From positions 1 to 23,322 of IMG/VR virus record IMGVR_UViG_3300048028_000126: a stretch of 23,322 bases of DNA. The stretch is one strand, 5' to 3'. Positions 12,117-23,096 of the stretch are shown here, one piece after another (the first letter of the stretch is position 1; each line of letters begins with the position of its first letter). The translations under genes and the position numbers were made by a program. Origin of the DNA: a virus. The notes below the pieces were generated by a model that was given only the letters and a program-made list of their open reading frames with translations, was not told the DNA's origin and made no database searches.

Positions 12117-13402
12117 TATGTACTCAATGAATTATATTTGACTGCTAAATTAAAAAATTGTCCCAGTTTCTTTTGGCCCGCGTTACCCGCTTTATTAGTT
12201 CGTATGGACATCTCCATAGTCACATTATCATCTTTCGACTTTAGTTCAATGAACCAATTCTGTTTTGATGTAGTAGATGGGTATGCACGAACAAACTTTA
12301 CCATAGGCAAAAAGACGCCTAGTTCATCATTCGAAGTGATCTCTTCAAAACCGTCCTTTACTGCTTTAATAACCTTAGTAGGAACATCGGGTGCGTCTCT
12401 TAATATTTCTGTCCGGATATAGTCTAAAGTCTTATCTTTATCCGTATTGAAGAGGTCGATGACAGCCTTACGGCATGTCTCCAAGTGTTTGTCGTACAGT
12501 TCCTCATATTTGGTACTGTCATCACGATTCAACTTTACTAGTAGTCCAGAAGTAACTCGTTTCTTGGATTTGTCATATGCACCACTAGGTGGCATACCTT
12601 GTATCTTAGAATAGACATCGGTGTGCAGTTGTCTGCGAAGGACACTTACATTACGTTGTTTCTTGAAGGACGTGAAGATAGGATTGACGTAGGTGTTGAG
12701 TTTAGGTTCTTTGGTCTTCTTACCACCCGCTTTGAGCGATACTCCCAACATTGCACCATCGGTAAACTCAATAAAGATATCGCCGGGATGGTTCTTAGGG
12801 ACACCCGTAGGTTTTGCACGATATCCCCAATAGACCTGTTTGATTGATTTGTTCTTGTTTTCTTCTTGCAGATACTTGTAGACACCCATCGCGTTCAACA
12901 TCTTCTCAGTGAACTTGGAAGATTCAGACGCCTTCTGGATGGTATCGATTGCCGCTTGAGCATCGGACGGTTGAACACAGGTTAGAGTTTTAGGGTCCTG
13001 TTTCAATAGGTGATCATAGAAATCTTGTACACTGGTCGTCATCGTGTAACCCGTTTCCCACGCGATGGCAGGGAACAGTTCTGTAATAGATGCGTTTAGA
13101 GTGGTCTCACCGATACCACCGGACTTAGGTTTTACCAGAATAACTACTTTGGTATCGAAACCAGAATCAATGAATATAGGGTCAACTGACTGCCCAGACT
13201 TCTCACGAACTTCTGCCTTGACACCCGCTTGGTTTAGATCACGAGCGATCTCATCCCTGTCCGTGAGACGGTCTTCTGACCGAACAACAAATACTGTGGT
13301 CTTACTGTTTTCGGATTTTTTCTCAACAGGAAGGTCCCCGAATACGTCCGGAAAATCGGACACACCGACCTCTTCTGATAAGAAGGCTTTAAAAGTTTTC
13401 AT
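12116..13402 (-). CDS. Capsid-tagged putative nuclease-like protein, 428 aa
   Basis: Leader MKTFKAFLSEE is a near-exact capsid-targeting sequence with the L-S-E cut site. The next 20-130 residues form an alpha/beta domain (TTVFVVRSEDRL, FDTKVVILVKP). The central NHPGDIFIEFTDG (D208, E212) followed by LGVSLKAGGKK (K224) has the strand-turn-strand form of a PD-(D/E)XK nuclease core, with S-L-K where E-x-K is usual; then LNTYVNPI. This assignment is tentative. The gene is the first after the early promoter at 13432-13462 and the late promoter at 13449-13456. A virion-borne nuclease could attack host DNA on entry; alternative: an inactive structural relative. Confidence 0.6.
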   Translation of the reverse strand: MKTFKAFLSEEVGVSDFPDVFGDLPVEKKSENSKTTVFVVRSEDRLTDRDEIARDLNQAGVKAEVREKSGQSVDPIFIDSGFDTKVVILVKPKSGGIGETTLNASITELFPAIAWETGYTMTTSVQDFYDHLLKQDPKTLTCVQPSDAQAAIDTIQKASESSKFTEKMLNAMGVYKYLQEENKNKSIKQVYWGYRAKPTGVPKNHPGDIFIEFTDGAMLGVSLKAGGKKTKEPKLNTYVNPIFTSFKKQRNVSVLRRQLHTDVYSKIQGMPPSGAYDKSKKRVTSGLLVKLNRDDSTKYEELYDKHLETCRKAVIDLFNTDKDKTLDYIRTEILRDAPDVPTKVIKAVKDGFEEITSNDELGVFLPMVKFVRAYPSTTSKQNWFIELKSKDDNVTMEMSIRTNKAGNAGQKKLGQFFNLAVKYNSLST

Positions 13403-13431
13403 ATCAATTCCCTAGTAATTAAGATATGGTT

Positions 13432-13462
13432 AGTATACTTTTATTCTATTTATATGTCAAGG
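13432..13462 (-). promoter_or_regulatory. Sigma70-like promoter (19-bp spacer)
   Basis: Minus strand TTGACA (13457-13462) and TATACT (13432-13437), spacer 19 bp, longer than the optimum. It would drive the tagged nuclease-like gene at 13402. The exact late element TATAAATA lies within its spacer. Confidence 0.5.
13449..13456 (-). promoter_or_regulatory. T4-type late promoter TATAAATA
   Basis: Exact TATAAATA on the minus strand, 47 bases before the ATG of the capsid-tagged nuclease-like gene and directly next to the TTGACA at 13457-13462. It overlaps the exonuclease stop codon. It would start the late operon of tagged proteins running left. Confidence 0.75.
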
Positions 13463-14127
13463 GAATTGTGAGAATTTTCTTCATTATATTGAGCGATAGT
13501 TTCACGTAGAGGACGAACCCAGTTGTCACGGTGTTCGATAAACACCTGTGGTTCATGATTGTCTACGGATATGATAGTGACAAGTTGTGTGATGGGACGA
13601 CCTGTGCGTTCTTCCCACATAATTGCATAGGCAGATTCTTGCATGAAATAGTTCTTGATCCAATCAAGACGTTTTGGTTTCATAGATGTTTTAAAATCGA
13701 TGATAGATAACTGACCGTCAAACTCAGCAACACAATCCACACGCCCAGCGACACCCAGATGGTTGGAGTAGAGTGGTGCTTCCTGTGCATATACTCTGCC
13801 AATACGATCATCAAGAATGGGTTTAAGATCAAGAAAAGAATTAATAATATCTGGAGTATATCCATTTTGGTAGCTCTCATTGTTGTCGATATATTTTTCA
13901 ACTATTTCATGGACACGGGTTCCACGTCCAGATGCACGAGTTGAAATTCGGTTTGCTTCTTCTACACCGACACGAGCACGCCACTTCGCAATAGAATCAC
14001 GAGAGAGAATAGAAAGTACGGTAGTGATTGAAGGTAAGTTCACACCTTCGGGTGTTTTGTATTTACGACCTTGGTCCGTAGTCACGGCGGTCATCTCGCT
14101 CAAGTTCACAGGAACATGTTCAAACAT
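13450..14127 (-). CDS. Cas4/RecB-like PD-(D/E)XK exonuclease, 225 aa
   Basis: I place the start at the ATG at 14125-14127 (GGAT upstream) rather than the TTG four codons earlier. Motifs in order: GRGTRVHEIVEKYI with H73; AQEAPLY with E116; GVAGRVDCVAEF with D131; and LSIIDFKTSMKP with D144 and K146. This is the H-x-x-E/D-...-(D/E)xK order of the Cas4/RecB-nuclease (PDDEXK_1) family; a QxxxY-like helix follows at about 160 (MQESAYAI). These are metal-dependent DNA exonucleases; the phage version likely serves recombination, repair or host DNA breakdown. It has its own strong sigma70 promoter (14155-14183), so expression is probably early. No Cys cluster for Fe-S binding, unlike true Cas4. Confidence 0.8.
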   Translation of the reverse strand: MFEHVPVNLSEMTAVTTDQGRKYKTPEGVNLPSITTVLSILSRDSIAKWRARVGVEEANRISTRASGRGTRVHEIVEKYIDNNESYQNGYTPDIINSFLDLKPILDDRIGRVYAQEAPLYSNHLGVAGRVDCVAEFDGQLSIIDFKTSMKPKRLDWIKNYFMQESAYAIMWEERTGRPITQLVTIISVDNHEPQVFIEHRDNWVRPLRETIAQYNEENSHNSLDI

Positions 14128-14154
14128 AATATAATCCAATCAATTTAATAGTAT

Positions 14155-14183
14155 ATTATACGTTATTAAAACGTATCTGTCAA
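14155..14183 (-). promoter_or_regulatory. Sigma70 promoter, consensus
   Basis: Minus strand TTGACA (14178-14183), 17-bp spacer, TATAAT (14155-14160), both hexamers perfect. It lies 28 bases before the exonuclease start codon, in a 70-bp gap. Confidence 0.85.
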
Positions 14184-14197
14184 GTATATTTGTTAAT

Positions 14198-14329
14198 TTA
14201 TTTTAATGGGTTAGAGTCATTTTTTTCTAACTCACGTCGTTCCTTTTCTAAAAGGATATAAGAGACTAAGCTAGTTACAACAACTACTATACCTACTATC
14301 ATAAAGAAACATTTTATAAACGTTAACAT
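14198..14329 (-). CDS. Small single-span membrane protein, 43 aa
   Basis: Read by hand. ATG at 14327-14329 with AGAGGT five bases upstream, ending at TAA 14198-14200. The product begins MLTFIKCFFMIVGIVVVV and continues TSLVSYILLEKERRELEKND: one transmembrane helix of about 22 residues and a short charged tail. Function unknown. The ribosome binding site lies just after the large structured RNA at 14352-14515 (22 bases from the end of its closing stem), so the RNA could be a leader of this gene or an independent RNA followed by it. Microproteins like this in phages may act on host membrane complexes. Confidence 0.6.
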   Translation of the reverse strand: MLTFIKCFFMIVGIVVVVTSLVSYILLEKERRELEKNDSNPLK

Positions 14330-14351
14330 AATTTACCTCTGGTGATAAGAA

Positions 14352-14515
14352 TCCCCACAAGTACAGGGCTCCGAAGGGTACTTTATGTGTCGGTGAACCG
14401 TAACTAACTGCTTGGCATTTTCACATGCACGTTTTGAGAGATCGCAGTTTTAAGTTAGTGCGCGATGGTTGGCGCATTGTTCATCTCGTGTACCGAGCCC
14501 TGTACTGTGTGGGGA
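14352..14515 (-). ncRNA. Structured RNA element of 164 nt closed by a 20-bp stem, next to tRNA-Ala
   Basis: Arms 14352-14371 and 14495-14515 pair as 12 bp plus 8 bp with one bulged base. Inside, nested pairs are: 14377-14381/14490-14494 (GGTAC/GTACC), 14394-14398/14479-14483 (TGAAC/GTTCA), 14403-14409/14453-14459 (ACTAACT/AGTTAGT), and hairpins 14415-14418/14425-14428 and 14460-14463/14472-14475. A competing helix 14406-14411/14444-14449 (AACTGC/GCAGTT) excludes the ACTAACT helix. On the minus strand the element begins three bases after the tRNA-Ala CCA and ends 22 bases before the 43-aa ORF. No long ORF inside. It is probably cotranscribed with the tRNA and cut off by tRNA processing. I do not recognise the class. 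Strand is inferred from neighbours. Confidence 0.65.
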
Positions 14516-14518
14516 AAC

Positions 14519-14594
14519 TGGTGGAGTTAGAGGGAATCGAACCCACGACCTTCTGGATGCAAACCAGACGCTCTCCCTACTGAGCTATAACCCC
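14519..14594 (-). tRNA. tRNA-Ala(UGC)
   Basis: Complete cloverleaf: acceptor GGGGTTA/TAACTCC including the G3:U70 wobble pair that marks alanine tRNAs, D stem GCTC/GAGC, anticodon loop TTTGCAT (anticodon UGC), TTCGA in the T loop, discriminator A and encoded CCA. One T-stem U-U mismatch. A late promoter lies 17 bases upstream (14611-14618); the structured RNA follows directly. Confidence 0.92.
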
Positions 14595-14610
14595 TAAATC
14601 TTACCTTCCT

Positions 14611-14618
14611 TATTTATA
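14611..14618 (-). promoter_or_regulatory. T4-type late promoter TATAAATA between two tRNA genes
   Basis: Exact TATAAATA on the minus strand, between tRNA-Gly and tRNA-Ala. It would start RNA about 10 bases before tRNA-Ala and so also produce the structured RNA late in infection. AT-rich surroundings make a chance match possible. Confidence 0.55.
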
Positions 14619-14631
14619 TATCTATCTAATT

Positions 14632-14707
14632 TGGAGCGGATAGTCGGGTTCGAACCGACGACCTCGACGTTGGCAACGTTGTGCTCTACCAGCTGAGCTA
14701 TATCCGC
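14632..14707 (-). tRNA. tRNA-Gly(GCC)
   Basis: Acceptor GCGGATA/TATCCGC pairs perfectly; D stem GCTC/GAGC; anticodon loop TTGCCAA gives GCC; T arm GTCGG TTCGAAC CCGAC; discriminator U and encoded CCA. The anticodon stem has one A-C mismatch (CAACG/CGTCG). It lies 8 bases after the peroxidase gene stop, so it is transcribed with it. Confidence 0.92.
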
Positions 14708-14715
14708 AGTTTTCA

Positions 14716-16131
14716 TTAATCGCATCCTAATTCGGAACGTGAGTCATCATCATTATTAGTGACACACAGACCACTTGGTAGCTCTGTCGGTACATATCGC
14801 ATCAACTCAGGATCGTATAGACTTGTCTCTAAGAATGTAACTAGGTTAGAGATTTCCTCTTCAGTCAAGTCAAGTGGTGTGAATCGATAGTCTAGGTCAC
14901 TAACCTCTACATCTGGGTTTTGAGGAGTTGCCGCAACTTTATATCGTACGACCTCTTCTACACTAGTAAATGATGCGCCATGGCCAAATACAGTAGTATC
15001 TATAAGGTTGTAAAGTGGCGGTACTTTGAACGCATACTTCTCCATATCGTCACCCGTAAATCCGGATCGACCTTCTCTTACACCATCCGGCACTTCACCA
15101 ATAATGTCGTCCCACATGTCTAGGTCATGGAATCCAAGTGTCATGAATACTTCGGTTGCCATAGAACCAACGGGTGATGACAGGGCGGGTCCATTATGAC
15201 AACCAGCGCAGTTACCTTTACCAAAGAACACTTTTGCACCTTCAACTTCTTCTATTGTCAGTGCATCTTCATTACCGCGTAAGAATTCTTGGAATGGTGC
15301 GCGGTTTGCAAGGATAGTCCTCTCGTATGCGGCAATCGCGAGTGCGGCAGCTTCTAACATATCGTGCGGTTGCGATGTGCCATATGCCGCTTCGAACATC
15401 ATCTGATACTTCTCATTGGTGGTAAGTATAGAACCTTCTTCCACATTCATTCGGTGAACGCCTAGACCCGCGACTGCCTGTGTCTCAAGACCAGACAACC
15501 CTCTTAGGTTGGCTTCCTTCGGAGTACCTTCCGTGAAGTGACGATCTGGGTCAATACCTATGTTCACAATACCACCAACTTCATTACCGAACTGACCATT
15601 CCAAAGCATAACTTCTTGGTAGGCAGTATTCAGTACTGTAGGTGATGTTACTGGTTGCACATCAGCATCTTCTGGATTAATTCCTTCAGCAAGCATACGA
15701 TGATTGAATCCGATACCACCTTCACCGATACCCTGACGAATACCAGACTTGAATCCATTCTGACCATTGTGGCAAGATGCACATGACCATGTATTCTCCA
15801 AGTCTGTCTTATTAGTTTCGGTAGATGTGATTCCCGTCTCATGATAAATGAACTTGCCCAACTCCACCTTTTCGGCAGTGATTGGGTTACTGGGGTCTTG
15901 GGGGATGTTTAGGAAGTCGTCACTCTCAGGTAGCAGGTATCCTTCATAAGAACCTGTAGGTGACGTGGTTCCCATAATTTCTTTAAGTTCTCCGATAGAG
16001 ACTTCAAGTGCTGTCGGTTCTGGTGCGGGTAGAGGTGCCACCGCCACTGGCTCTGGTGCGGAATCCGAAGTGCCACCCGAACAGGCGCTAAGGACGGTCG
16101 TGCATAATACTACAGATAGTAGGTTTTTCAT
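14716..16131 (-). CDS. Di-haem cytochrome c peroxidase / MauG-family lipoprotein, 471 aa
   Basis: I start at the ATG at 16129-16131 (SD AGAGG), not the TTG six codons earlier. MKNLLSVVLCTTVLSAC is a lipoprotein signal with the lipid-bearing Cys at residue 17, then a Pro/Ala linker. The body follows the bacterial CCP/MauG plan: KVELGKFIYHETG, first haem site CASCH (117-121), PTVLNTAY, second haem site CAGCH (308-312), and FKVPPLYNL then FGHGASFTSVEEVVRYK near the end. These enzymes reduce H2O2 to water, or oxidise protein substrates, in the periplasm, taking electrons from small cytochromes c. Length is normal for the family. Haem must be attached by the host Ccm system. It is headed by its own sigma70 promoter and followed by tRNA-Gly. 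Phage-borne copies are unusual. Confidence 0.9.
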   Translation of the reverse strand: MKNLLSVVLCTTVLSACSGGTSDSAPEPVAVAPLPAPEPTALEVSIGELKEIMGTTSPTGSYEGYLLPESDDFLNIPQDPSNPITAEKVELGKFIYHETGITSTETNKTDLENTWSCASCHNGQNGFKSGIRQGIGEGGIGFNHRMLAEGINPEDADVQPVTSPTVLNTAYQEVMLWNGQFGNEVGGIVNIGIDPDRHFTEGTPKEANLRGLSGLETQAVAGLGVHRMNVEEGSILTTNEKYQMMFEAAYGTSQPHDMLEAAALAIAAYERTILANRAPFQEFLRGNEDALTIEEVEGAKVFFGKGNCAGCHNGPALSSPVGSMATEVFMTLGFHDLDMWDDIIGEVPDGVREGRSGFTGDDMEKYAFKVPPLYNLIDTTVFGHGASFTSVEEVVRYKVAATPQNPDVEVSDLDYRFTPLDLTEEEISNLVTFLETSLYDPELMRYVPTELPSGLCVTNNDDDSRSELGCD

Positions 16132-16173
16132 AATATAAGAGCCTCTCAAATACTCTTTTCAATTTAGAAAGGA

Positions 16174-16203
16174 ATTATACTATAAGATATGAGGACTTGT
16201 CAA
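16174..16203 (-). promoter_or_regulatory. Sigma70 promoter before the peroxidase
   Basis: Minus strand TTGACA (16198-16203) and TATAAT (16174-16179), spacer 18 bp; both hexamers perfect. It lies 42 bases before the peroxidase ATG. Confidence 0.85.
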
Positions 16204-16213
16204 GGGTAAATGG

Positions 16214-16900
16214 TTATTTATTTTTAACTCGTTTGGTCGCCTGCTTCTCTGCATCAATCCACTTCTGTGCCTTCTTAGAGACAGGTTTGTCAGTGAACTT
16301 CTTAGCATCACGGAATGCAGTTAGAGTTTCTTTCTCGTAGTCTTTACCTTCAGAGTTATCTACAACCAAGAAGTTAGGTTTACCAAACATACGTTGGAAC
16401 TTACCGATATTGCGTTGTACTGCTTTCCAATACTCAGTAACACCTTTCTCGCCTAGGGTACGAGCACGTTTTGCATCACGGCTGATAGCAGTATCAAGGT
16501 CTGTGTTTACGAAAATCATTGCGACATCGTAACCCATGGCCTTTACTTTCTTTGCCTGTTCAGCAATTTTATCTGGGTCTTTACCAGTACCATCTACTAC
16601 GAGACCAAGACGACCTTTCAGATAACGCTCTTCCCTTTTCCCTGTAAGCTTCTTTGCCTTACCACGGAGTTCTTGTCCTTTCGGAGAGAAGATGTTGTCC
16701 GGAGTCATATCCATATCAACCTTCTTCATAGCAGCTTCGAATGCGTCATCTGAGTTGACAACCTTGTAACCCATAGAAGTCAGACCTGTCTTACCGACGA
16801 TGAATGACTTACCAGAACCTGGCCCACCCGCAAGAAAGATTGCCTTGAAGATTGCTGGATCGTTTACGCCTTCGTCTAAGAATGTTTTAAAAGATTTCAT
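16214..16900 (-). CDS. Capsid-tagged P-loop kinase (polynucleotide kinase / zeta-toxin-like), 228 aa
   Basis: The open frame extends further, but the ATG at 16898-16900 gives MKSFKTFLDEG, the leader seen on its partners, so I choose it; the late promoter at 16932-16939 supports this. Next comes a kinase: FLAGGPGSGKSF (Walker A, residues 25-32), VVNSDDAFE (D51-D52, substrate end), LVVDGTGKDPDKI, and the Arg-rich lid NTDLDTAISRDAKRART. This is the layout of phage P-loop kinases related to polynucleotide kinase and zeta toxins, which phosphorylate RNA/DNA ends or UDP-sugars. Lys-rich C-terminus. With the KWDG ligase-like protein it could form an end-healing and sealing pair delivered by the virion; that is inference. 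Confidence 0.8.
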   Translation of the reverse strand: MKSFKTFLDEGVNDPAIFKAIFLAGGPGSGKSFIVGKTGLTSMGYKVVNSDDAFEAAMKKVDMDMTPDNIFSPKGQELRGKAKKLTGKREERYLKGRLGLVVDGTGKDPDKIAEQAKKVKAMGYDVAMIFVNTDLDTAISRDAKRARTLGEKGVTEYWKAVQRNIGKFQRMFGKPNFLVVDNSEGKDYEKETLTAFRDAKKFTDKPVSKKAQKWIDAEKQATKRVKNK

Positions 16901-16931
16901 TGTAATAGTATCTGTTGATGGTAGTTGTATG

Positions 16932-16939
16932 TATTTATA
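16932..16939 (-). promoter_or_regulatory. T4-type late promoter TATAAATA before the tagged kinase
   Basis: Exact TATAAATA on the minus strand, 31 bases before the kinase ATG. It directly follows a run of seven T (16941-16947, minus strand) that adjoins the tRNA-Ser CCA and may help end the tRNA transcript. Confidence 0.75.
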
Positions 16940-16947
16940 CAAAAAAA

Positions 16948-17038
16948 TGGCCGAGGGATAGGGATTCGAACCCTAGATACGCTATTAACGTATGCCAGTT
17001 TTCAAGACTGGTGCATTCAACCGCTCTGCCATCCCTCG
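16948..17038 (-). tRNA. tRNA-Ser(UGA)
   Basis: Class II tRNA of 91 nt: acceptor CGAGGGA/TCCCTCG, anticodon loop CTTGAAA (anticodon UGA), long variable arm with ATACG/CGTAT, T arm with TTCGAAT, discriminator G and encoded CCA. Seven T residues follow the CCA. Last gene of the tRNA run started at about 19390. Confidence 0.92.
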
Positions 17039-17055
17039 TTAATTTTTATACTTTC

Positions 17056-17132
<77 letters not shown>

Positions 17133-17142
17133 GTAGAAAAGT

Positions 17143-17217
17143 TGGCTGGGGTGGAAGGATTCGAACCTACGAATGACGGGATCAAAACCCGTTGCCTTAC
17201 CACTTGGCGACACCCCA
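17143..17217 (-). tRNA. tRNA-Gln(UUG)
   Basis: Acceptor TGGGGTG/CACCCCA (U1-A72, usual for glutamine), anticodon loop TTTTGAT (anticodon UUG), T loop TTCGAAT, discriminator G, encoded CCA. It lies 10 bases from tRNA-Arg. Confidence 0.92.
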
Positions 17218-17242
17218 AACCTGTTTGCTCTACTGGGCACCA

Positions 17243-17272
17243 CTCATTCAGTTATTTGTAAAGGGGAATGAG
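17243..17272 (-). other. Stem-loop between tRNA-Pro and tRNA-Gln
   Basis: CTCATTC (17243-17249) pairs with GAATGAG (17266-17272), 7 bp with a 16-base loop, in the 67-base spacer between two tRNA genes. It could be a processing spacer or a small RNA; there is no T run after it that would make it a terminator. Confidence 0.35.
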
Positions 17273-17284
17273 ACCCTTATTCTT

Positions 17285-17361
17285 TGGTCGGGAATGTAGG
17301 ATTTGAACCTACGACCCTTCGCTCCCAAAGCGAATGCGCTACCAGACTGCGCTAATCCCCG
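17285..17361 (-). tRNA. tRNA-Pro(UGG)
   Basis: Acceptor CGGGGAT/ATTCCCG with the C1-G72 pair usual for proline, anticodon stem TTCGC/GCGAA, loop TTTGGGA (anticodon UGG), T arm GTAGG TTCAAAT CCTAC, discriminator A and encoded CCA. The 79 bases upstream to tRNA-Tyr hold no ORF or clear hairpin. Confidence 0.92.
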
Positions 17362-17440
17362 TAATAAAGGAGCAGTTTTCCACTTACTCAGGTGACGGGC
17401 GTAACGACCAGTGCAAGTTTAAAGTCATTCCGAGACTAAA

Positions 17441-17524
17441 TGGTGGGGAGAGGTGGATTCGAACCACCGAAGCTTTCGCGTCAGATTTACAGTCTGATCC
17501 CTTTGGCCGCTCGGGAACCTCCCC
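17441..17524 (-). tRNA. tRNA-Tyr(GUA)
   Basis: Class II tRNA: acceptor GGGGAGG/TCTCCCC, anticodon stem TCAGA/TCTGA with loop CTGTAAA (anticodon GUA), long variable arm with CGAAAGCTTCG, T arm GGTGG TTCGAAT CCACC, discriminator A, encoded CCA. Confidence 0.92.
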
Positions 17525-17529
17525 GATAT

Positions 17530-17742
17530 TTAGCCGAGGATAATCTCCTCTCTTTTCTTCTTAGCGGGTTGACGAATACCAAGATAAGTTTCGAGAATCT
17601 CGATCTCCTTGTCCTTACGCTTCTGCCACTGTTGCTCAGTTCGAGCAACCCCTTTCTTGTTGTTCTTCTCAAAGAACTTTGACTCTGTGAGTCTCTCTAG
17701 TGCGCCTTCACGGCGACGGCGATCTTCTGCCTTACCTCTCAT
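17530..17742 (-). CDS. Small charged hypothetical protein, 70 aa
   Basis: Sits between tRNA-Asp and tRNA-Tyr with AAAGGAT eight bases before the ATG (17740-17742). The product is hydrophilic and strongly basic/acidic (RGKAEDRRRREGALERL, EQQWQKRKDKEIEILETYLG), predicted helical, without a recognised domain. The protein-coding gene inside a tRNA run is supported by the RBS and by the fit of the frame to the gap. Function unknown. Confidence 0.55.
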   Translation of the reverse strand: MRGKAEDRRRREGALERLTESKFFEKNNKKGVARTEQQWQKRKDKEIEILETYLGIRQPAKKKREEIILG

Positions 17743-17763
17743 AAACTATCCTTTTTATAAAGT

Positions 17764-17840
17764 TGGCGGAGCGGACGGGACTCGAACCCGCGACCCCCGG
17801 CGTGACAGGCCGGTATTCTAACCAACTGAACTACCGCTCC
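17764..17840 (-). tRNA. tRNA-Asp(GUC)
   Basis: Acceptor GGAGCGG/CCGCTCC, anticodon stem CCGGC/GCCGG, loop CTGTCAC (anticodon GUC), T arm GCGGG TTCGAGT CCCGT, discriminator G as usual for aspartate, encoded CCA. It starts six bases after the lipoprotein gene. Confidence 0.93.
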
Positions 17841-17845
17841 AATAA

Positions 17846-18223
17846 TTATGGTTTCAATCCTTTTTTACCTTGGTGGTATCTTCCCCAGATACAGTGAGCA
17901 ACTTCATGCCCAATCAACTCTGGTTCCCATTGCCACTCAGGGTCTTTAATATAAATTGTACACTCACCCGTTGACGGAATCCATAGAGCAAACGCACTCA
18001 CCGAATCCCACTTTACACCTAACTTTTTCTTACGAACATGATCGTACTCAGCTTGGTTCTTCAACAAAATAAAATTAACCTTTGGGCTTAGATTCTCATA
18101 TTCCTTTACAAGGAACTTAAAGTCATCTGCACCATAGCGATATGTGTTAGTTACACCGCTTGAAGCACAACCGCCTAAAACTAAACTAACTATTATCGTG
18201 AACGTGTAACTGAATAAGCGCAT
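17846..18223 (-). CDS. Putative lipoprotein with HExxH zinc-peptidase motif, 125 aa
   Basis: MRLFSYTFTIIVSLVLGGC is a lipoprotein signal (lipobox LGGC, Cys 19). The mature part of about 106 residues ends with ELIGHEVAHCIWGRYHQ: H106-E107-x-x-H110 is the zinc-binding and catalytic motif of metallopeptidases, with H117 seven residues on as a possible third ligand. Conserved-looking strands (ALWIPSTGECTIYI) precede it. It would sit on the periplasmic face of a membrane and may cut a peptide bond of host or cell-wall origin; a structural, non-catalytic role remains possible. It begins 38 bases inside the DUF3310-like gene. Confidence 0.65.
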   Translation of the reverse strand: MRLFSYTFTIIVSLVLGGCASSGVTNTYRYGADDFKFLVKEYENLSPKVNFILLKNQAEYDHVRKKKLGVKWDSVSAFALWIPSTGECTIYIKDPEWQWEPELIGHEVAHCIWGRYHQGKKGLKP

Positions 18224-18560
18224 AATGCAAAACCTTCATTAAATCTTTACGCGCATCGTTATCGGTTCCTTTCTTACCGTAACGTTGCGCATACTTTAAA
18301 ACATTACCGATACAGAACCCTGTACCATGACCGCCGTCAACAATAAATTCAGTCGCCTGAAACTTGTCTTTGGCATAGTGCTGATTGTATGTGGCATCGA
18401 TATATTGCTTGAACTCATCAATCAACTTACCTTCACTAAACTTATAGTCCACAGTACTAATATCAGCAGCTTCTCGCATTGTTACACCATTCGAGTATCT
18501 CTCAAACTCTACCGTCTCATTAGTATAAGGTGGAGTGTGTGCATAAATCGTTTTACTCAT
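18186..18560 (-). CDS. DUF3310-like phage protein, 124 aa
   Basis: The C-terminal two thirds match the DUF3310 (SaV-like) pattern as I remember it: an HY at 61-62 (NQHYAKDKFQATEFI), then GFCIGNVLKYAQRYGKKG at 81-98 (the G-N-x-x-K-Y-x-x-R-Y motif), then a helix rich in Leu (ARKDLMKVLHYALIQL). These short proteins are widespread in phage early regions; a nucleotide-kinase-like name is often attached, but biochemistry is thin. The first 40 residues are unusual. SD GAGAAT. It lies in an early operon with the cupin, a membrane protein and the HEVAH lipoprotein. Confidence 0.65.
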   Translation of the reverse strand: MSKTIYAHTPPYTNETVEFERYSNGVTMREAADISTVDYKFSEGKLIDEFKQYIDATYNQHYAKDKFQATEFIVDGGHGTGFCIGNVLKYAQRYGKKGTDNDARKDLMKVLHYALIQLHVHDNS

Positions 18561-18561
18561 A

Positions 18562-18849
18562 TTACCATTCTCTCAATATAGTTGTGCCTAACATAAACAA
18601 GGAAACCGCATTTAGCATAATCAATGCGCGATCCTTCCAAATAACTGATACCCAAGTCCATAGTATGATGCCTACGAACCCGATTGTCAAGTCATACATG
18701 CGATAATCTGGTCCGGCAGATCGCATCGCCATTGAAATTAAAATCAAAATAGAAGCGACCCACTTGAGATACCAATCAAAGTTTTCAGGGTACCACGAAC
18801 GATCCGGCTTAGTTCGACCGTCTGCTCTTACTTGAGGATCTCCGTTCAT
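18562..18849 (-). CDS. Small multi-span membrane protein, 95 aa
   Basis: About 25 polar N-terminal residues are followed by three hydrophobic segments: WYLKWVASILILISMAM, LTIGFVGIILWTWVSVIW and ALIMLNAVSLFMLGTTIL. It resembles small membrane proteins of unknown role found in marine phages. The ATG overlaps the stop of the cupin gene (ATGA) and lies a few bases after GGGAGT, so it is co-translated with it. A role in host membrane or lysis timing is possible; no motif supports it. Confidence 0.6.
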   Translation of the reverse strand: MNGDPQVRADGRTKPDRSWYPENFDWYLKWVASILILISMAMRSAGPDYRMYDLTIGFVGIILWTWVSVIWKDRALIMLNAVSLFMLGTTILREW

Positions 18850-19199
18850 GACTTACTCCCTATGGTTCGACGGACGATGTCGTTGTGGTTAAACTCTGCC
18901 CAATATAACTCGAATGCAACTCCGTCTTTGAGACCTTCGAACTGGTGAATCTTGCCTGGCTTGACTTGAGTGAACTCTCCCGCACGTAGAATGGTCTCAT
19001 CGACAAGACCGTCTTGGTCATCTTGCCATACGCGCACGATCATCTCACCGGACTCTACGAAGAAACCGTTCCACTTATATTCATGGAGATGTTCGGAACA
19101 CTTGAAACCTTTCTTGTATTCGATACGATGAAACTCTAGAACGCCATTCGCATGAATGAGTTCTGTCTGTCCCCAAATCTTTCCTGCCTTCATAGTCAT
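18846..19199 (-). CDS. Cupin-domain protein, 117 aa
   Basis: A single small beta-barrel (cupin): CSEHLHEYKWNGFFVESGEM holds the first motif (H37, H39, G51), and PGKIHQFEGL the second (P81, H85). The spacing between the two motifs is typical of single-domain cupins. The His set could bind a metal. Cupins bind sugars, small acids or act in nucleotide-sugar isomerisation; the substrate is not evident. The gene is first after tRNA-Leu and has GAGAG before the ATG. Start at MTM or MK is uncertain by two codons. Confidence 0.75.
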   Translation of the reverse strand: MTMKAGKIWGQTELIHANGVLEFHRIEYKKGFKCSEHLHEYKWNGFFVESGEMIVRVWQDDQDGLVDETILRAGEFTQVKPGKIHQFEGLKDGVAFELYWAEFNHNDIVRRTIGSKS

Positions 19200-19225
19200 A
19201 CTACTCTCACTGGATCATAATAATT

Positions 19226-19310
19226 TGGTGCGAAAGGAGAGACTCGAACTCTCACGCCGTGAAGCACTGGTACCTAAAACCAGCGTGTCTACCAATTCCA
19301 CCACTCTCGC
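19226..19310 (-). tRNA. tRNA-Leu(UAG)
   Basis: Class II tRNA: acceptor GCGAGAG/CTTTCGC, anticodon stem CTGGT/ACCAG, loop TTTAGGT (anticodon UAG), variable arm TGCTTCACGGCGT, T arm GAGAG TTCGAGT CTCTC, discriminator A, encoded CCA. Four bases from tRNA-Asn. Confidence 0.92.
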
Positions 19311-19314
19311 ATAT

Positions 19315-19390
19315 TGGCTGGCAAGGCAGGGCTCGAACCTGCGACCAGATGATTAACAGTCATCGGCTCTACCAACTGAGCTACTTGCCA
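19315..19390 (-). tRNA. tRNA-Asn(GUU)
   Basis: Acceptor TGGCAAG/CTTGCCA, D stem GCTC/GAGC, anticodon stem GATGA/TCATC, loop CTGTTAA (anticodon GUU), T arm GCAGG TTCGAGC CCTGC, discriminator G, encoded CCA. First gene after the sigma70 promoter at 19404-19432. Confidence 0.93.
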
Positions 19391-19403
19391 AAATTATGTG
19401 CAT

Positions 19404-19432
19404 ATTATATCAAAAAATAAGAGGACTGTCAA
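19404..19432 (-). promoter_or_regulatory. Sigma70 promoter, consensus, before the tRNA-Asn operon
   Basis: Minus strand TTGACA (19427-19432), 17-bp spacer, TATAAT (19404-19409). It overlaps the last codons of the HELQH gene and lies 13 bases before tRNA-Asn; it should drive tRNA-Asn through at least the tRNA-Ser region. Confidence 0.85.
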
Positions 19433-19806
19433 GTGTCCAAATCGTCTAAATTGACAACCCCTTCATGGAGCCACTTCTCTTCTAAAGGGGTCAGTTTTTC
19501 GTTCTCATACTGACGCGCCTCTATTTCATCAGGATGATTATGATATCCCTTAATAAGATTGAGAAGGACATATCGCAAATAAAACATGACAACACCCCTC
19601 TTTTTTATTTGATAACAGTGTTGCAACTCATGTCGATATAATTTAACAAGAGATCGCCGTGTCATTAATTCTGATTGTGCTACTGACCCTGTAGCATACT
19701 TACGTGGACGCATGATCATATATGGCCATAACACTACACCACGAAAACGAGACCTCCAAGGAAATATAGACTCGCTCTCATTTTTGTACACAATTTTAAA
19801 CTTCAT
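19429..19806 (-). CDS. HExxH metallopeptidase-like protein, 125 aa
   Basis: VKLYRHELQHCYQ gives H59-E60-x-x-H63, the zinc-binding motif, and 30 residues later YHNHPDEIEARQYE offers E94 or E96 as third ligand, the gluzincin-like order HExxH...E. The intervening segment (GVVMFYLRYVLLNLIKG) is hydrophobic and may help membrane association. No signal peptide. It resembles small uncharacterised phage or bacterial proteins with a minimal metallopeptidase core. Whether it cuts peptides is unknown. The ATG overlaps the end of the 39-aa membrane protein by 11 bases. Not homologous by eye to the HEVAH lipoprotein beyond the motif. Confidence 0.65.
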   Translation of the reverse strand: MKFKIVYKNESESIFPWRSRFRGVVLWPYMIMRPRKYATGSVAQSELMTRRSLVKLYRHELQHCYQIKKRGVVMFYLRYVLLNLIKGYHNHPDEIEARQYENEKLTPLEEKWLHEGVVNLDDLDT

Positions 19807-19915
19807 CTTTACCCCACCGTCTTAGTGTCTCTTTATGTATAGTTTTGTGACAGTAGTACATCGTAATACCGCCAAATACCATAGGGCACAAAAAGACCGC
19901 AAGAATACCCAACAT
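19796..19915 (-). CDS. Small single-span membrane protein, 39 aa
   Basis: Read by hand from the gap between the 70-aa gene and the HELQH gene. MLGILAVFLCPMVFGGITMYYC is a transmembrane helix; the rest (HKTIHKETLRRWGKDEV) is basic. A TTG four codons upstream, overlapping the previous stop, is an alternative start because no good SD stands before the ATG. It overlaps the HELQH gene by 11 bases, so the two may be coupled. Confidence 0.5.
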   Translation of the reverse strand: MLGILAVFLCPMVFGGITMYYCHKTIHKETLRRWGKDEV

Positions 19916-19923
19916 TCCTACAC

Positions 19924-20136
19924 TCAAGCGTTTGCCCGTTCCACCATCTCTTCATGGGTGACTTTGCGTTTCGCTAATTCGTTACGGAACTTTTGTTTCA
20001 ACTTAGGTGTGCGGCATGATAAAAACTCATTCCACAACGATTCCGTCGAAAGGTTCTTTACATAGAAACGTGATGTCGTGACCTTTAATGTCATACGATC
20101 TTTCACGATACTATCTTCTTTGTACTTAATTGGCAT
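19924..20136 (-). CDS. Conserved small phage protein, 70 aa
   Basis: The sequence MPIKYKEDSIVKDRMTLKVT followed by SRFYVKNLSTESLW and KLKQKFRNELAKRKV fits a small family I recall from marine T4-like phages (a YK-x-D start, an F-Y-x-K-N strand and a C-terminal K-x-K-x-K-x-x-N-E-L helix). Function unknown. SD GAGGTAAC before the ATG is strong. It supports the T4-like marine phage assignment of the right half of the window. Confidence 0.65.
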   Translation of the reverse strand: MPIKYKEDSIVKDRMTLKVTTSRFYVKNLSTESLWNEFLSCRTPKLKQKFRNELAKRKVTHEEMVERANA

Positions 20137-20143
20137 TGTTACC

Positions 20144-20371
20144 TCACAGCTTTAATATAGGGACCACAACATTTTCACCCTGTGGTTCGTCTTCTTCTTT
20201 TCCACCGCACCAAGAACATTCTTCTCCTCGTGCGACATATATGTAACCGTCATGCATACAACTATGTGGCCACATCACGGTCTTTGCGTTTTCATAAAAA
20301 CACTCGTTAAAAGTGTCATCCCACTCTGAGTTACCTGTTTTAGAAATAGGCGACTCCGCAATCTCAATCAC
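20144..20371 (-). CDS. Small Cys-containing protein, 75 aa
   Basis: Starts with GTG (20369-20371) overlapping the stop of the membrane protein gene (GTGA). The C-terminal half has HSCMHDGYIYVARGEECSWCGGK: a C-x-x-C pair (ECSWCGG) and an H-x-C-x-H, which together could bind one zinc ion, though the number and spacing do not match a family I know. The rest is acidic. No function can be named. Confidence 0.55.
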   Translation of the reverse strand: MIEIAESPISKTGNSEWDDTFNECFYENAKTVMWPHSCMHDGYIYVARGEECSWCGGKEEDEPQGENVVVPILKL

Positions 20372-20703
20372 CCTTCGTTCTCCAGATCCCAGAGACTCCT
20401 TCGATCCTTAGGCAATATATTATCACGCTTGACCCACAAGTGTCCATTCTTCTCAGCATCGCTGAATATAGCAACGGTAATGAAGAATGCACCAAGCACT
20501 GCAAGGTGACCACCCACACTATAAATGCCATACTTCCACGTGTAACCTGCCCAGAAAGTGAACACTACTGACCACATCACTGACAAGTAAAACATGAGAA
20601 TAAACTGTACAAGTTCATTCGGAATGTGTCTCAGTGGATTGACCTTCAAATCAAAGAAAAATCTATAAAAATCATAAATTGCAAATCCGACACTCTTAAA
20701 CAT
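20368..20703 (-). CDS. Membrane protein with two or three spans, 111 aa
   Basis: Hydrophobic segments at about 30-55 (LVQFILMFYLSVMWSVVF) and 62-85 (VGGHLAVLGAFFITVAIF), with an amphipathic N-terminus (FAIYDFYRFFFDLKVNP) and a polar, charged tail. SD AGAGGAAT. It directly follows the cytochrome c gene in the tRNA-Glu operon, so a membrane partner of that cytochrome is possible; no haem or quinone motif is visible, and the link is only positional. Confidence 0.65.
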   Translation of the reverse strand: MFKSVGFAIYDFYRFFFDLKVNPLRHIPNELVQFILMFYLSVMWSVVFTFWAGYTWKYGIYSVGGHLAVLGAFFITVAIFSDAEKNGHLWVKRDNILPKDRRSLWDLENEG

Positions 20704-20726
20704 TTCACTATTCCTCTATAAATTGT

Positions 20727-21038
20727 CTACTTTGATGGTAGACCTTCCTGAACGAAAACACCAAGCGTACCGATCTGTCCTTCAGACAAAGCTTTTGCTT
20801 GACTCCACATAAGACCAGACAATGGGCCGCGAGTCTCACCATTCCTATATGATAAGAGAGCGTCGATAATATAATCAGCGTTCTTTCCTACTAATGCGGG
20901 AAACGAACCCATACCCTGACCTTCTGTTCCATGACAACCTGCACAAACCATCCATATACCACGAACATCTTCAAATCGATCTTCGTCTGCACATACTGGT
21001 GCGCTGATTAGTAACATTGATAATAATAAGTTTTTCAT
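20727..21038 (-). CDS. Periplasmic class I cytochrome c, 103 aa
   Basis: I start at the ATG at 21036-21038, which has AAAGGA at good spacing; an in-frame ATG 18 bases upstream is less likely. MKNLLLSMLLISAPVCA is a Sec signal with cleavage after residue 17. The mature part of about 86 residues has CAGCHGTEGQG at 32-42 (haem CxxCH at 32-36), and SGLMWSQAKALSEGQIG, where M77 is the likely sixth ligand and the helix is typical of c4/c553-type cytochromes. It carries electrons in the periplasm between membrane complexes and soluble enzymes such as the di-haem peroxidase at 14716-16131. Host haem lyase/Ccm is needed. It follows tRNA-Glu in one operon. Confidence 0.9.
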   Translation of the reverse strand: MKNLLLSMLLISAPVCADEDRFEDVRGIWMVCAGCHGTEGQGMGSFPALVGKNADYIIDALLSYRNGETRGPLSGLMWSQAKALSEGQIGTLGVFVQEGLPSK

Positions 21039-21057
21039 AACTATTCCTTTAGTCATA

Positions 21058-21132
21058 TGGTATCCCGTAGGGGACTCGAACCCCTGTTACCGCCGTGAAA
21101 GGGCGGTGTCCTAACCTCTAGACGAACGGGAC
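21058..21132 (-). tRNA. tRNA-Glu(UUC)
   Basis: Acceptor GTCCCGT/ACGGGAT with a G1-U72 wobble, anticodon stem CCGCC/GGCGG, loop CTTTCAC (anticodon UUC), T arm AGGGG TTCGAGT CCCCT, discriminator A, encoded CCA. First gene after the promoter at 21142-21170. Confidence 0.92.
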
Positions 21133-21141
21133 ATTTTGAGT

Positions 21142-21170
21142 ATTATAACAAAAGACAATGTCCCTGTCAA
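21142..21170 (-). promoter_or_regulatory. Sigma70 promoter, consensus, before tRNA-Glu and cytochrome c
   Basis: Minus strand TTGACA (21165-21170), 17-bp spacer, TATAAT (21142-21147). Both hexamers perfect. It begins just after the stop of the 85-aa gene and drives tRNA-Glu, cytochrome c and the following small genes. Confidence 0.88.
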
Positions 21171-21174
21171 TACC

Positions 21175-21432
21175 CTAGTTGATTTTTTCCACTAGGATTG
21201 TTACTTCTCCTAAATCGCCTCTAACTGTGATAGCCCAATCAAACACATCAACGTGCACTGTATTGTATTGGTAGTCTTTAGTCACTTCATCTGCAGCGCG
21301 GTCTATCGCCCGTTCCGCATCACCGTACACACAGATTAACCCACCTGTGTGGTCGTACAATATATATGCATTATTTACCTCTAGTTTTTCCGGAAACAAG
21401 CCTGTCGGAAGTGATGCATAATCGATTGACAT
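21175..21432 (-). CDS. Hypothetical protein, 85 aa
   Basis: Unrecognised. The ATG overlaps the stop of the SleB-like gene (TAATG), with AGAGGAAT upstream, so it is co-translated with the hydrolase. Beta-rich with acidic patches (NNAYILYDHTGGLICVYGD, YNTVHVDVFDWAITV). No signal peptide or membrane span, no catalytic motif. Position right after a lysis-type enzyme allows an accessory role, without evidence. Confidence 0.6.
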   Translation of the reverse strand: MSIDYASLPTGLFPEKLEVNNAYILYDHTGGLICVYGDAERAIDRAADEVTKDYQYNTVHVDVFDWAITVRGDLGEVTILVEKIN

Positions 21433-21953
21433 TAGTATTCCTCTTTATAGAAGATATGGTCTCCTATCCTACCAATCAATCTCATCCTTTCGTGGGAACT
21501 CCACTCAGGTTTTACATAATTAGCATGGTAGTGTGTAGACCCTTCTGTTATCCCATTGTACTTACGGAAGAAAATCATATCTCGGGCCACGTCCTTTGCA
21601 CGTAACCAAGAATATGTCTCTACTGGTTCGTCTGAGAGACCATCACAATACCAACTGAACTGACACATATTGCGTCTAGGTATTATAAGCCCTCTGTCGG
21701 TTCCCCATTGACTCAGTACTGCTTGTTTGACGACCCCACATATAGATGATGGATAACGTCGATCTTTCACACGATTGAGAGTAACATCCGCAACCGCATA
21801 TTGTCCGGCAAGACTTTCGCTCCTTGCTTCATGGTATATATTCAATGCCAGACATTCGACTTCTTCATTCATATCATCATCTTGTGCGTTGACATAGTTT
21901 ATATATCCAATTACAGATATTGACACGAGGAACGATAATATGCGCAATCTCAT
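21432..21953 (-). CDS. Secreted SleB-type cell-wall hydrolase (putative endolysin), 173 aa
   Basis: MRLRILSFLVSISVIGYINYVNA is a Sec-type signal or signal-anchor, then the hydrolase domain: ECLALNIYHEARSES (with the catalytic-type Glu in YHEAR), GQYAVADVTLNRV, YPSSICGVV, MCQFSWYCDG, and at the end STHYHANYVKPEW and HIFY. This motif order is the Hydrolase_2/SleB family, which cuts murein glycan or crosslinks. In a phage it is the probable endolysin; the N-terminal signal suggests export by Sec, as in SAR or signal-peptide endolysins, rather than dependence on a large-hole holin. Coupled on both sides by TAATG overlaps. Confidence 0.85.
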   Translation of the reverse strand: MRLRILSFLVSISVIGYINYVNAQDDDMNEEVECLALNIYHEARSESLAGQYAVADVTLNRVKDRRYPSSICGVVKQAVLSQWGTDRGLIIPRRNMCQFSWYCDGLSDEPVETYSWLRAKDVARDMIFFRKYNGITEGSTHYHANYVKPEWSSHERMRLIGRIGDHIFYKEEY

Positions 21954-22078
21954 TAGACTGTCTTACGCAGTAGTTTTAGAAGTTTTGCTAACTCTTTCTT
22001 TTGTTTAGGGCTGGGATTGGAACCCGACTTTGCGAGTAGTACGGCGTACTCTCTGGCAATGTTTGATTGATAACTCAT
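21953..22078 (-). CDS. Small basic hypothetical protein, 41 aa
   Basis: Read by hand. ATG at 22076-22078 overlaps the TGA of the 52-aa gene; the TAA at 21953-21955 overlaps the ATG of the SleB-like gene. The sequence starts MSYQSNIAREYAVLLAKSG and ends with a Lys/Leu helix KKELAKLLKLLRKTV. The perfect overlaps at both ends argue it is real. Function unknown; the helix is amphipathic and basic. Confidence 0.65.
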   Translation of the reverse strand: MSYQSNIAREYAVLLAKSGSNPSPKQKKELAKLLKLLRKTV

Positions 22079-22233
22079 TGTATACCCTCCACACTAAAGT
22101 AATCACAGACACATTTCATCGCCTCTATGAGTTCGCTCTCTTCCTGTGGACATAGGTATAGAATATTGTCAGACAATGTTTTGACCATCAATTGGTCAAT
22201 ACTATCATCATCTACTTCAAGTTGAACTAGCAT
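22075..22233 (-). CDS. Small acidic hypothetical protein, 52 aa
   Basis: Read by hand. ATG at 22231-22233 after GAGGTG, stop TGA at 22075-22077 overlapping the next ATG. The product starts MLVQLEVDDDSIDQLMVKTL and has Cys residues in LYLCPQEE and MKCVCDY. It is the first gene after the consensus promoter at 22269-22297. No family recognised. Confidence 0.65.
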   Translation of the reverse strand: MLVQLEVDDDSIDQLMVKTLSDNILYLCPQEESELIEAMKCVCDYFSVEGIQ

Positions 22234-22268
22234 AAAACACCTCAATAGTTATTAGTAACATGAGGTGA

Positions 22269-22297
22269 ATTATACCCTATTATATAGGGAGTGTCAA
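22269..22297 (-). promoter_or_regulatory. Sigma70 promoter, consensus, before the lysin cluster
   Basis: Minus strand TTGACA (22292-22297), 17-bp spacer, TATAAT (22269-22274), perfect hexamers. It drives the 52-aa, 41-aa, SleB-like and 85-aa genes. Confidence 0.88.
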
Positions 22298-22301
22298 GTG
22301 G

Positions 22302-23096
22302 TTATTGACTAATTTTAGCGATGATTTCGTGTAACTGGTTTGCGAACACTTTTTGTGTTCTTTCGCCTGGATGACCATGCTCTTTAATATTATTTAAAGA
22401 GATACCTATACTGTACATATCCTCACCGTGACCCATACCAATACGACTAGTCTTTTTCAGATTAGTTATAGATTGTGTCAACCACTCTTTGTAGTCTGGT
22501 ATAGATTCTATACGTTGTTCTTTATTTTGTATTTTGCCTGAAGCATCATCTGGACATTTATCTGACAATATAGAAATTATGTTAGACCAGTTTCGTTTAT
22601 GGAAAACTCCCTGAACTAGAATTATTCCTTTAGCCTCACATATAACCTCTAGAGCTTTCATTTTGCTGAGAGTATGCATGATGTCAGTCTTAGAGTCATA
22701 TGCCTCATCAAACATATATTTGTAAGCACGTCTCCATTCTTTATCATAGATAATTTCAGTACGAAGCTGTGAAAACTGCGTGACATCATTCTGACGACCA
22801 ATCTTCACCTCACGTTCCTCCGGCATATACTCTACAACTTCTTTGCGTTGCCATGCGGACCACATTACAACTACATGAGTGACCTCATCTTTGTGAGGGT
22901 GAGAATGCAAAAAGTCAGTAACTTCACGAAATATTTTATCGTTACATGCACCGCAAACACCACGGTTAGAATACTCGATACCAAGTTTCTTAGCAAGCAG
23001 GTGAGTAAAAGTATATTCCCAATGGGTAGGTGGAGAATCATTCCAACCTTTCAGTTCGTCTCCCCAGACGAAACTACATCCAGCTGTTACCAACAT
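22302..23096 (-). CDS. SGNH/GDSL-hydrolase-like protein, 264 aa
   Basis: MLVTAGCSFVWGDEL gives the block I motif G-x-S-F-x-x-G (Ser 8 in GCSF as possible nucleophile), SNRGVCGACND gives a block II/III-like Gly and Asn, HVVVMWSAWQRKE is a strand ending in W, and GHPGERTQKVFANQLHEII near the end has the H-P-x-x-x-x-Q pattern that stands where the catalytic D-x-x-H lies in the family. SGNH enzymes hydrolyse esters on polysaccharides or lipids. Similar proteins are common in marine T4-like phages, usually of unknown substrate. The ATG overlaps the iscU stop (TAATG), so the two are translated together. Confidence 0.6.
   Translation of the reverse strand: MLVTAGCSFVWGDELKGWNDSPPTHWEYTFTHLLAKKLGIEYSNRGVCGACNDKIFREVTDFLHSHPHKDEVTHVVVMWSAWQRKEVVEYMPEEREVKIGRQNDVTQFSQLRTEIIYDKEWRRAYKYMFDEAYDSKTDIMHTLSKMKALEVICEAKGIILVQGVFHKRNWSNIISILSDKCPDDASGKIQNKEQRIESIPDYKEWLTQSITNLKKTSRIGMGHGEDMYSIGISLNNIKEHGHPGERTQKVFANQLHEIIAKISQ

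What the first reader, a model, noticed from the sequence alone, without database searches (positions are those of the whole stretch)
14716..21038. Phage-encoded cytochrome c and di-haem peroxidase pair
Both proteins are intact and carry export signals: a lipoprotein with CASCH and CAGCH (14716-16131) and a small CAGCH cytochrome (20727-21038). Each has its own unit led by a consensus sigma70 promoter, and each is grouped with a tRNA. Small cytochromes c are the normal electron donors of bacterial di-haem peroxidases, so the pair could give the infected cell peroxide removal, or an electron sink, independent of host expression. Periplasmic c-type cytochromes are uncommon phage cargo.
Basis: partly seen in the sequence, partly recalled or inferred. 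Interest (0 to 1): 0.82.

Follow-up and report, generated by a model that had tools for sequence, protein, structure and literature searches.

The report
Phage di-haem enzyme and cytochrome c
A family of large ocean bacteriophages carries, as a standing gene, an outer-membrane two-haem enzyme related to bacterial peroxidases, and some of them also carry a small electron-carrying cytochrome c; both genes look intact and functional, but they are not an obligatory enzyme-donor pair and the enzyme's active-site residues are unlike those of known peroxidases.

Summary
In detail: two intact, exported c-type cytochrome genes lie at the stated coordinates in a T4-like marine phage contig. Each follows a perfect sigma70 promoter and shares its unit with tRNA genes. 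The 'peroxidase' (471 aa lipoprotein) is a CCP_MauG superfamily member by sequence and predicted fold. It occurs at 60 IMG/VR loci and in a complete 156 kb phage genome, in a fixed slot between tRNA genes, under strong purifying selection. One Halieaceae chromosome carries a copy nested inside the phage clade, which points to phage-to-bacterium transfer. The small cytochrome c is accessory: of nine di-haem contigs over 60 kb only one has it, while about 100 other viral loci encode relatives, and none of 22 such records tested holds the di-haem gene. So the two are not a conserved pair. The whole enzyme family (48 of 48) has Arg227 where bacterial peroxidases, MauG and BthA have the catalytic Glu, and it lacks the Met ligand of the electron-entry haem, so a classical cytochrome c peroxidase reaction cannot be assumed. 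Peroxide removal at the cell envelope remains the likeliest role; several of these phages also carry a peroxiredoxin. No earlier report was found in the papers held.

The parts
14716..16131 (-). Di-haem c-type lipoprotein of the CCP_MauG superfamily (471 aa)
   Evidence: Pfam CCP_MauG; AF2 model pLDDT 88.6, Z about 30 to bacterial CCPs and MbnH; haem motifs invariant in 48 homologues
16174..16203 (-). Sigma70 promoter (TTGACA-18-TATAAT, 12/12) of the di-haem gene
   Evidence: a site of at least 10/12 lies upstream in 17 of 18 IMG/VR phage orthologues tested and 12/12 in Phage C48C1
14632..14707 (-). tRNA-Gly(GCC), 8 bases after the di-haem gene
   Evidence: tRNA-Ala and/or tRNA-Gly follow the gene in most relatives
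14519..14594 (-). tRNA-Ala(TGC)
20727..21038 (-). Class I mono-haem cytochrome c with cleavable signal peptide (103 aa; c5/c552-like)
21058..21132 (-). tRNA-Glu(TTC) upstream of the cytochrome gene, same transcription unit
21142..21170 (-). Sigma70 promoter (12/12, extended -10) of the tRNA-Glu/cytochrome unit
   Evidence: no such site within 200 bases upstream of the cytochrome in L044, L045
20368..20703 (-). Small membrane protein gene that follows the cytochrome; same neighbour in L044, L045 and, two genes on, in L157
   Evidence: no Pfam match

Best explanation
The di-haem lipoprotein is a standing auxiliary metabolic gene of a lineage of about 137-160 kb T4-like phages that probably infect marine Gammaproteobacteria. 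It is transcribed from a strong host-type promoter, exported, lipidated and loaded with haem by the host's Ccm system, and sits in the periplasm, probably anchored to the outer membrane. There it most likely uses and removes peroxide during infection, taking electrons from whatever periplasmic donors the host supplies. The small cytochrome c is a separate, accessory respiratory electron carrier present in some of these phages and in many other marine T4-like phages. It may feed the di-haem enzyme where both occur, but it mainly serves electron flow in the infected cell. Shown: gene integrity, homology, predicted fold, conservation, distribution, promoter sites, selection. Inferred: export and haem loading (from motifs), early expression, peroxide chemistry, electron donor, host, benefit to the phage.
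For: Superfamily and fold: Pfam CCP_MauG in 48/48 members; AF2 model pLDDT 88.6 and Z 28-30 to bacterial CCPs and MbnH over about 300 residues. Phage setting: gene between tRNA-Ser and tRNA-Ala/Gly across relatives; complete 156 kb relative C48C1; large contigs to 160 kb (most were reached through this gene). Selection: dN/dS about 0.05-0.13 for most pairs with usable pS. Promoter conservation. Peroxide theme: peroxiredoxin in C48C1, G413 and G007; in L157 and L158 a peroxiredoxin gene directly precedes the cytochrome gene; glutaredoxin-like genes flank the cytochrome in L049, L179, L201, L199. Outer-membrane anchored peroxidases exist (Neisseria BCCP, PMC10094543). Cytochrome independent of the enzyme.
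Against: No activity has been measured. The residue whose mutation impairs peroxide chemistry in BthA (E277Q; PMC6405878) is Arg in this family, and the Met ligand is absent, so the chemistry could differ. Peroxiredoxin was not found in six of the nine large contigs, so the peroxide theme is not universal. Bacterial homologues stand alone with no conserved neighbours that would reveal function.
Confidence: 0.45

Rival explanations
1. Dedicated pair: the phage cytochrome c is the specific electron donor of the phage di-haem peroxidase, giving a self-contained peroxide-reducing chain.
For: Both genes occur in the window, in its near-copy (L043 contig) and in the 160 kb contig G007. The cytochrome matches PDB cytochromes of the c4/c552/c554 kind, including 1cno, a cytochrome c552; from general knowledge the Pseudomonas nautica c552 is the donor of its CCP.
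Against: Only one of nine contigs over 60 kb with the enzyme has the cytochrome; no cytochrome contig outside this lineage has the enzyme. The genes are 4.6 kb apart in separate units. The enzyme lacks the Met ligand that gives the electron-entry haem of CCPs its high potential.
Confidence: 0.15
2. MauG/MbnH-like oxidase: the enzyme uses peroxide to modify a protein partner at the cell envelope (for example a receptor or a respiratory protein) rather than to remove peroxide.
For: NCBIfam's closest models are MauG-like families (His-Xaa-Ser-associated, MbnH, MauG), all below cut-off; MbnH (6e1c) is as close in fold as CCPs; Met ligand absent, invariant inter-haem Trp177.
Against: No candidate substrate gene is conserved next to it in phages or bacteria. 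The catalytic Glu shared by MauG and BthA is replaced.
Confidence: 0.25
3. Respiratory sink: enzyme and/or cytochrome let the infected cell dispose of electrons to peroxide or keep the terminal oxidases supplied when host protein synthesis stops.
For: The longer phage cytochromes share the membrane anchor and CxxxC segment of a cytochrome found in a Halieaceae genome; E. coli YhjA uses peroxide as respiratory substrate (cited in PMC6405878).
Against: Nothing here tests respiration; the cytochrome is absent from most large contigs that carry the enzyme.
Confidence: 0.2
4. Assembly chimera or prophage/bacterial contamination.
For: One bacterial genome carries a close relative (L057).
Against: Same slot in independent assemblies and in the complete circular genome C48C1; the bacterial copy nests inside the phage clade, and a tree keeping phage genes together without it is rejected (p-AU 2e-5); only 1 of 140 Halieaceae genomes has it.
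Confidence: 0.02

Closest known systems
Bacterial di-haem cytochrome c peroxidases (CcpA/BCCP; Pseudomonas, Shewanella, Neisseria)
   Same: Fold, two CxxCH haems, inter-haem Trp (177), distal Gln (218), periplasmic; Neisseria BCCP is also outer-membrane lipid-anchored.
   Different: Catalytic Glu replaced by Arg227; no distal His on the peroxidatic haem (Glu137 there); Met ligand absent; about 30-residue family-specific insertion (183-214) before the distal helix.
MauG / MbnH / BthA
   Same: Fold (Z 22-30), best NCBIfam models, no Met ligand, no distal His; the C-terminal cysteine pair recalls BthA's disulfide.
   Different: The Tyr ligand position aligns with Lys398 (Tyr397 is next to it); catalytic Glu absent; distal Pro replaced by Gly/Ala; no mau, mbn or partner gene seen.
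Uncharacterised CCP_MauG lipoproteins of Alteromonas, Porticoccaceae, Aquimarina, Saprospiraceae
   Same: About 50-56% (Gammaproteobacteria) and 40-48% (mostly Bacteroidota) identity, full length, same unusual residues: this is the family it belongs to.
   Different: Phage copies group together, with a conserved tRNA-flanked slot and sigma70 promoter.
Phage-carried electron carriers (cyanophage plastocyanin and ferredoxin; from general knowledge)
   Same: Host-type redox protein kept by marine T4-like phages.
   Different: Here covalently haem-bearing periplasmic proteins that need the host Ccm system.

Membership tests
CCP_MauG superfamily (PF03150) | Match above Pfam gathering score and the di-haem fold | tested here: met
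   79.8 bits against 25.6; 48/48 members; Z about 30 to CCPs
CCP_MauG superfamily (PF03150) | Two CxxCH haem-binding motifs | tested here: met
   C117/C120/H121 and C308/C311/H312 invariant in 48 sequences
Classical bacterial cytochrome c peroxidase | Distal catalytic Glu (with Gln and Pro) in the peroxidatic haem pocket | tested here: not met
   hhalign places R227 (48/48) at the Glu and G222 near the Pro; Gln218 kept in 47/48. Sequence mapping only; pocket geometry was not examined
Classical bacterial cytochrome c peroxidase | Met as distal ligand of the high-potential haem | tested here: not met
   Position aligns with K398 (46/48), next to Y397; the only conserved Met column is 175, beside the inter-haem Trp
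Classical bacterial cytochrome c peroxidase | Inter-haem Trp | tested here: met
   W177 invariant
Classical bacterial cytochrome c peroxidase | H2O2 reduction with a cytochrome c or cupredoxin donor | not testable with these tools
   needs an assay
MauG / MbnH | NCBIfam equivalog score | tested here: not met
   109, 106 and 82 bits against cut-offs 340, 363 and 444
MauG / MbnH | Tyr ligand of the six-coordinate haem | tested here: inconclusive
   Y397 (46/48) is one residue off the aligned Tyr; K398 sits on it
MauG / MbnH | Partner gene (mau or mbnP) nearby | tested here: inconclusive
   No shared neighbour among ten bacterial neighbours scanned or in C48C1; not every neighbour was scanned
Class I cytochrome c (c5/c552-like) | N-terminal CxxCH, C-terminal Met ligand, above Pfam cut-off | tested here: met
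   C32/C35/H36 and M77 invariant in 29 sequences; 24.0 bits against 21.3
Phage auxiliary metabolic gene | Host-type metabolic gene fixed in bona fide phage genomes | tested here: met
   C48C1 and large IMG/VR contigs; purifying selection

The most novel reading that the evidence does not exclude
Marine T4-like phages widely carry their own periplasmic c-type electron-transfer proteins: many carry a membrane-anchored or soluble cytochrome c5-like protein, and one lineage carries a di-haem outer-membrane enzyme with a new active-site chemistry (distal His-Arg instead of Glu, no Met ligand). Together these would take control of the respiratory and peroxide chemistry of the infected gammaproteobacterial envelope, the heterotroph counterpart of photosystem genes in cyanophages.
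Probability: 0.3. Interest if true: 0.85.

Novelty: new variant of a known kind. Interest (0 to 1): 0.6.

Why it matters
Phages that infect photosynthetic hosts are known to carry electron-transport genes; this would extend the idea to the respiratory envelope of marine heterotrophs. It provides about 60 viral loci of a two-haem enzyme and 105 of a cytochrome c, a clear case of a phage-type gene inside a bacterial chromosome, and an uncharacterised enzyme family whose conserved residues predict chemistry unlike that of the studied peroxidases.

Tried and rejected
Conserved-pair idea: tested by profile searches of whole viral records and rejected as a general rule. Guilt by association in bacteria: ten neighbours of bacterial homologues were unrelated to each other (BCAA transporter, P450, GMP synthase, SusD, histidine kinase, DsbD-like and others). 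Viral structure library BFVD: no match, so no predicted viral protein there shares the fold at that sensitivity. Literature: no report of a phage-encoded di-haem CCP_MauG protein or of these cytochromes among the papers held; subscription journals are missing, so this is not proof of priority. Reading Lys398 as the haem ligand: left open, since two bacterial members have Ile or Leu there and two have Phe at 397. Origin of the phage cytochrome: the best bacterial match among 321 sampled gammaproteobacterial genomes is a membrane-anchored cytochrome of the same Halieaceae genome that carries the phage-type di-haem gene; no tree was built.
Full report
Check of the observation. The larger product has a lipobox ending at Cys17 followed by Ser, and the motifs CASCH and CAGCH. 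The smaller has a signal peptide, CAGCH and the downstream Met-Trp typical of class I cytochromes c. The promoters are perfect 12/12 sigma70 sites. The di-haem gene is followed by tRNA-Gly and tRNA-Ala; the cytochrome is preceded by tRNA-Glu. The contig holds eleven tRNA genes and is a 23 kb virus record.

What the phage is. The best match among phage records is Phage C48C1, a complete circular 156 kb genome assigned to Kyanoviridae. It carries the di-haem gene (68% identity, annotated 'hypothetical protein') next to the same tRNA-Ala and exonuclease genes. It has no small cytochrome.

Distribution. IMG/VR holds 60 loci with the di-haem gene and 105 with a relative of the cytochrome. In the di-haem phages scanned the gene lies between tRNA-Ser (or its neighbours) and tRNA-Ala, tRNA-Gly or tRNA-Asp. 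Seventeen of eighteen IMG/VR phage orthologues tested, and C48C1, have a sigma70 site of at least 10/12 within 200 bases upstream; the exception is the divergent L038. Of nine di-haem contigs above 60 kb (G001, G003-G007, G413, G414, C48C1) only G007 (160 kb) also has the cytochrome. Twenty-two cytochrome-bearing records were searched for the di-haem gene and none had it; six of these are 61-146 kb. One of the 22, the record of L044, has a cytochrome of the window's own type and is only a 31 kb fragment. The two genes therefore have separate histories, and co-occurrence is limited to the window's close relatives and G007. Records can be fragments, so absence from short ones is weak evidence.

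Two cytochrome forms. The window type (103-106 aa, cleavable signal) occurs in L044, L045, L155-L161, L197 and L199. A longer type (143-149 aa) has an N-terminal membrane anchor and a conserved CxxxC segment, and lies beside ribonucleotide reductase and glutaredoxin-like genes in the T4-like contigs inspected. A Halieaceae genome carries a host protein of the same long layout. No catalogued phage record matched either form.

Origin and transfer. In trees of phage and bacterial di-haem proteins the phage sequences sit inside marine Gammaproteobacteria. A single phage origin is only weakly supported (83/60). One bacterial sequence, from an uncultured Halieaceae genome, lies well inside the phage clade; holding the phage sequences together without it is rejected (p-AU 2e-5). 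That copy sits on an 84 kb contig between alaS, lysC and tRNA-Ser on one side and a metF-like gene on the other (gene names read by eye). No other of 140 Halieaceae genomes has the gene at E below 1e-100. This is best read as phage-to-bacterium transfer and suggests that Halieaceae or relatives are hosts; a misassembled bacterial bin is not fully excluded.

Selection. Among phage orthologues dN/dS is about 0.05-0.13 for most pairs with usable synonymous divergence. For the cytochrome most usable pairs give 0.12-0.31; the window and L044 differ too little to say (0.89 from very few changes).

Fold and active site. The AlphaFold2 model (48 rows, pLDDT 88.6) matches bacterial cytochrome c peroxidases, MacA, MbnH and MauG with Z up to 30 and BthA with Z 22.7. 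Profile alignment to a MauG-like paralogue from a Porticoccaceae genome, which keeps the catalytic Glu in '-HEM-', puts His226 on its His and Arg227 on the Glu. Both residues are invariant in 48 sequences, phage and bacterial. Gln218 and the inter-haem Trp177 are kept. The distal-His position of reductively activated peroxidases holds Glu137 (Asp in three), so the peroxidatic haem may be open without activation. The Met or Tyr ligand position of the second haem holds Lys398 with Tyr397 beside it; neither is strictly invariant. According to PMC6405878 the Gln-Pro-Glu trio is shared by bacterial peroxidases, MauG and BthA, and E277Q impairs both activities of BthA. By that standard the family is a member of the superfamily but not a classical cytochrome c peroxidase nor a demonstrated MauG. 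A distal His-Arg pair recalls other haem peroxidases (general knowledge), so peroxide chemistry remains possible.

Function. Three facts favour a peroxide role: the superfamily, the outer-membrane lipoprotein form shared with the Neisseria peroxidase (PMC10094543), and peroxiredoxin genes in the same phages. C48C1, G413 and G007 carry one, and in L157 and L158 a peroxiredoxin gene directly precedes the cytochrome. G007 has peroxiredoxin, cytochrome and di-haem gene within 10 kb. Against it stand the altered active site and the lack of peroxiredoxin in the other six large contigs searched. Bacterial homologues give no help because the neighbours scanned are not conserved.

Verdict. The strongest new points are the fixed, selected di-haem gene of a marine phage lineage, the wide occurrence of phage-encoded cytochrome c, the non-canonical active site and the phage-type copy in a bacterial chromosome.

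Noticed in passing
L057:5839-7341 (CAJXWP010000006.1, Halieaceae): A phage-type di-haem gene in a bacterial chromosome 1.4 kb from tRNA-Ser(GCT), between lysC and a metF-like gene; apparent phage-to-bacterium transfer.
   Followed up: yes
L157:5351-5893; L158:6121-6663; OQ984149 48338-48931: Phage-encoded peroxiredoxins (Redoxin family), directly upstream of the cytochrome gene in L157 and L158.
   Followed up: partly
L049, L179, L201 (beside the cytochrome gene): Many viral loci encode a membrane-anchored cytochrome c with CxxxC, next to ribonucleotide reductase and glutaredoxin-like genes; absent from catalogued phage records.
   Followed up: partly
window 13400-23322: Five perfect 12/12 sigma70 promoter sites on the minus strand in 10 kb (22297, 21170, 19432, 16203, 14183), several heading tRNA-containing units.
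   Followed up: no
window 16214-16942 (-): AAA/Zeta-toxin-like kinase (PF13671, PF06414) immediately upstream of the di-haem gene.
   Followed up: no
window 18846-19199 (-): Cupin protein (PF07883; PHROG annotated cysteine dioxygenase).
   Followed up: no
window 21432-21953 (-): Exported cell wall hydrolase (PF07486), probable endolysin.
   Followed up: no
L156:8528-9145 and 11679-12185; L161:4331-4948 and 6789-7295: Cytochrome-bearing phages with a ClpP-like protease gene and an HD-domain protein resembling (p)ppGpp hydrolases (read by eye, not searched).
   Followed up: no
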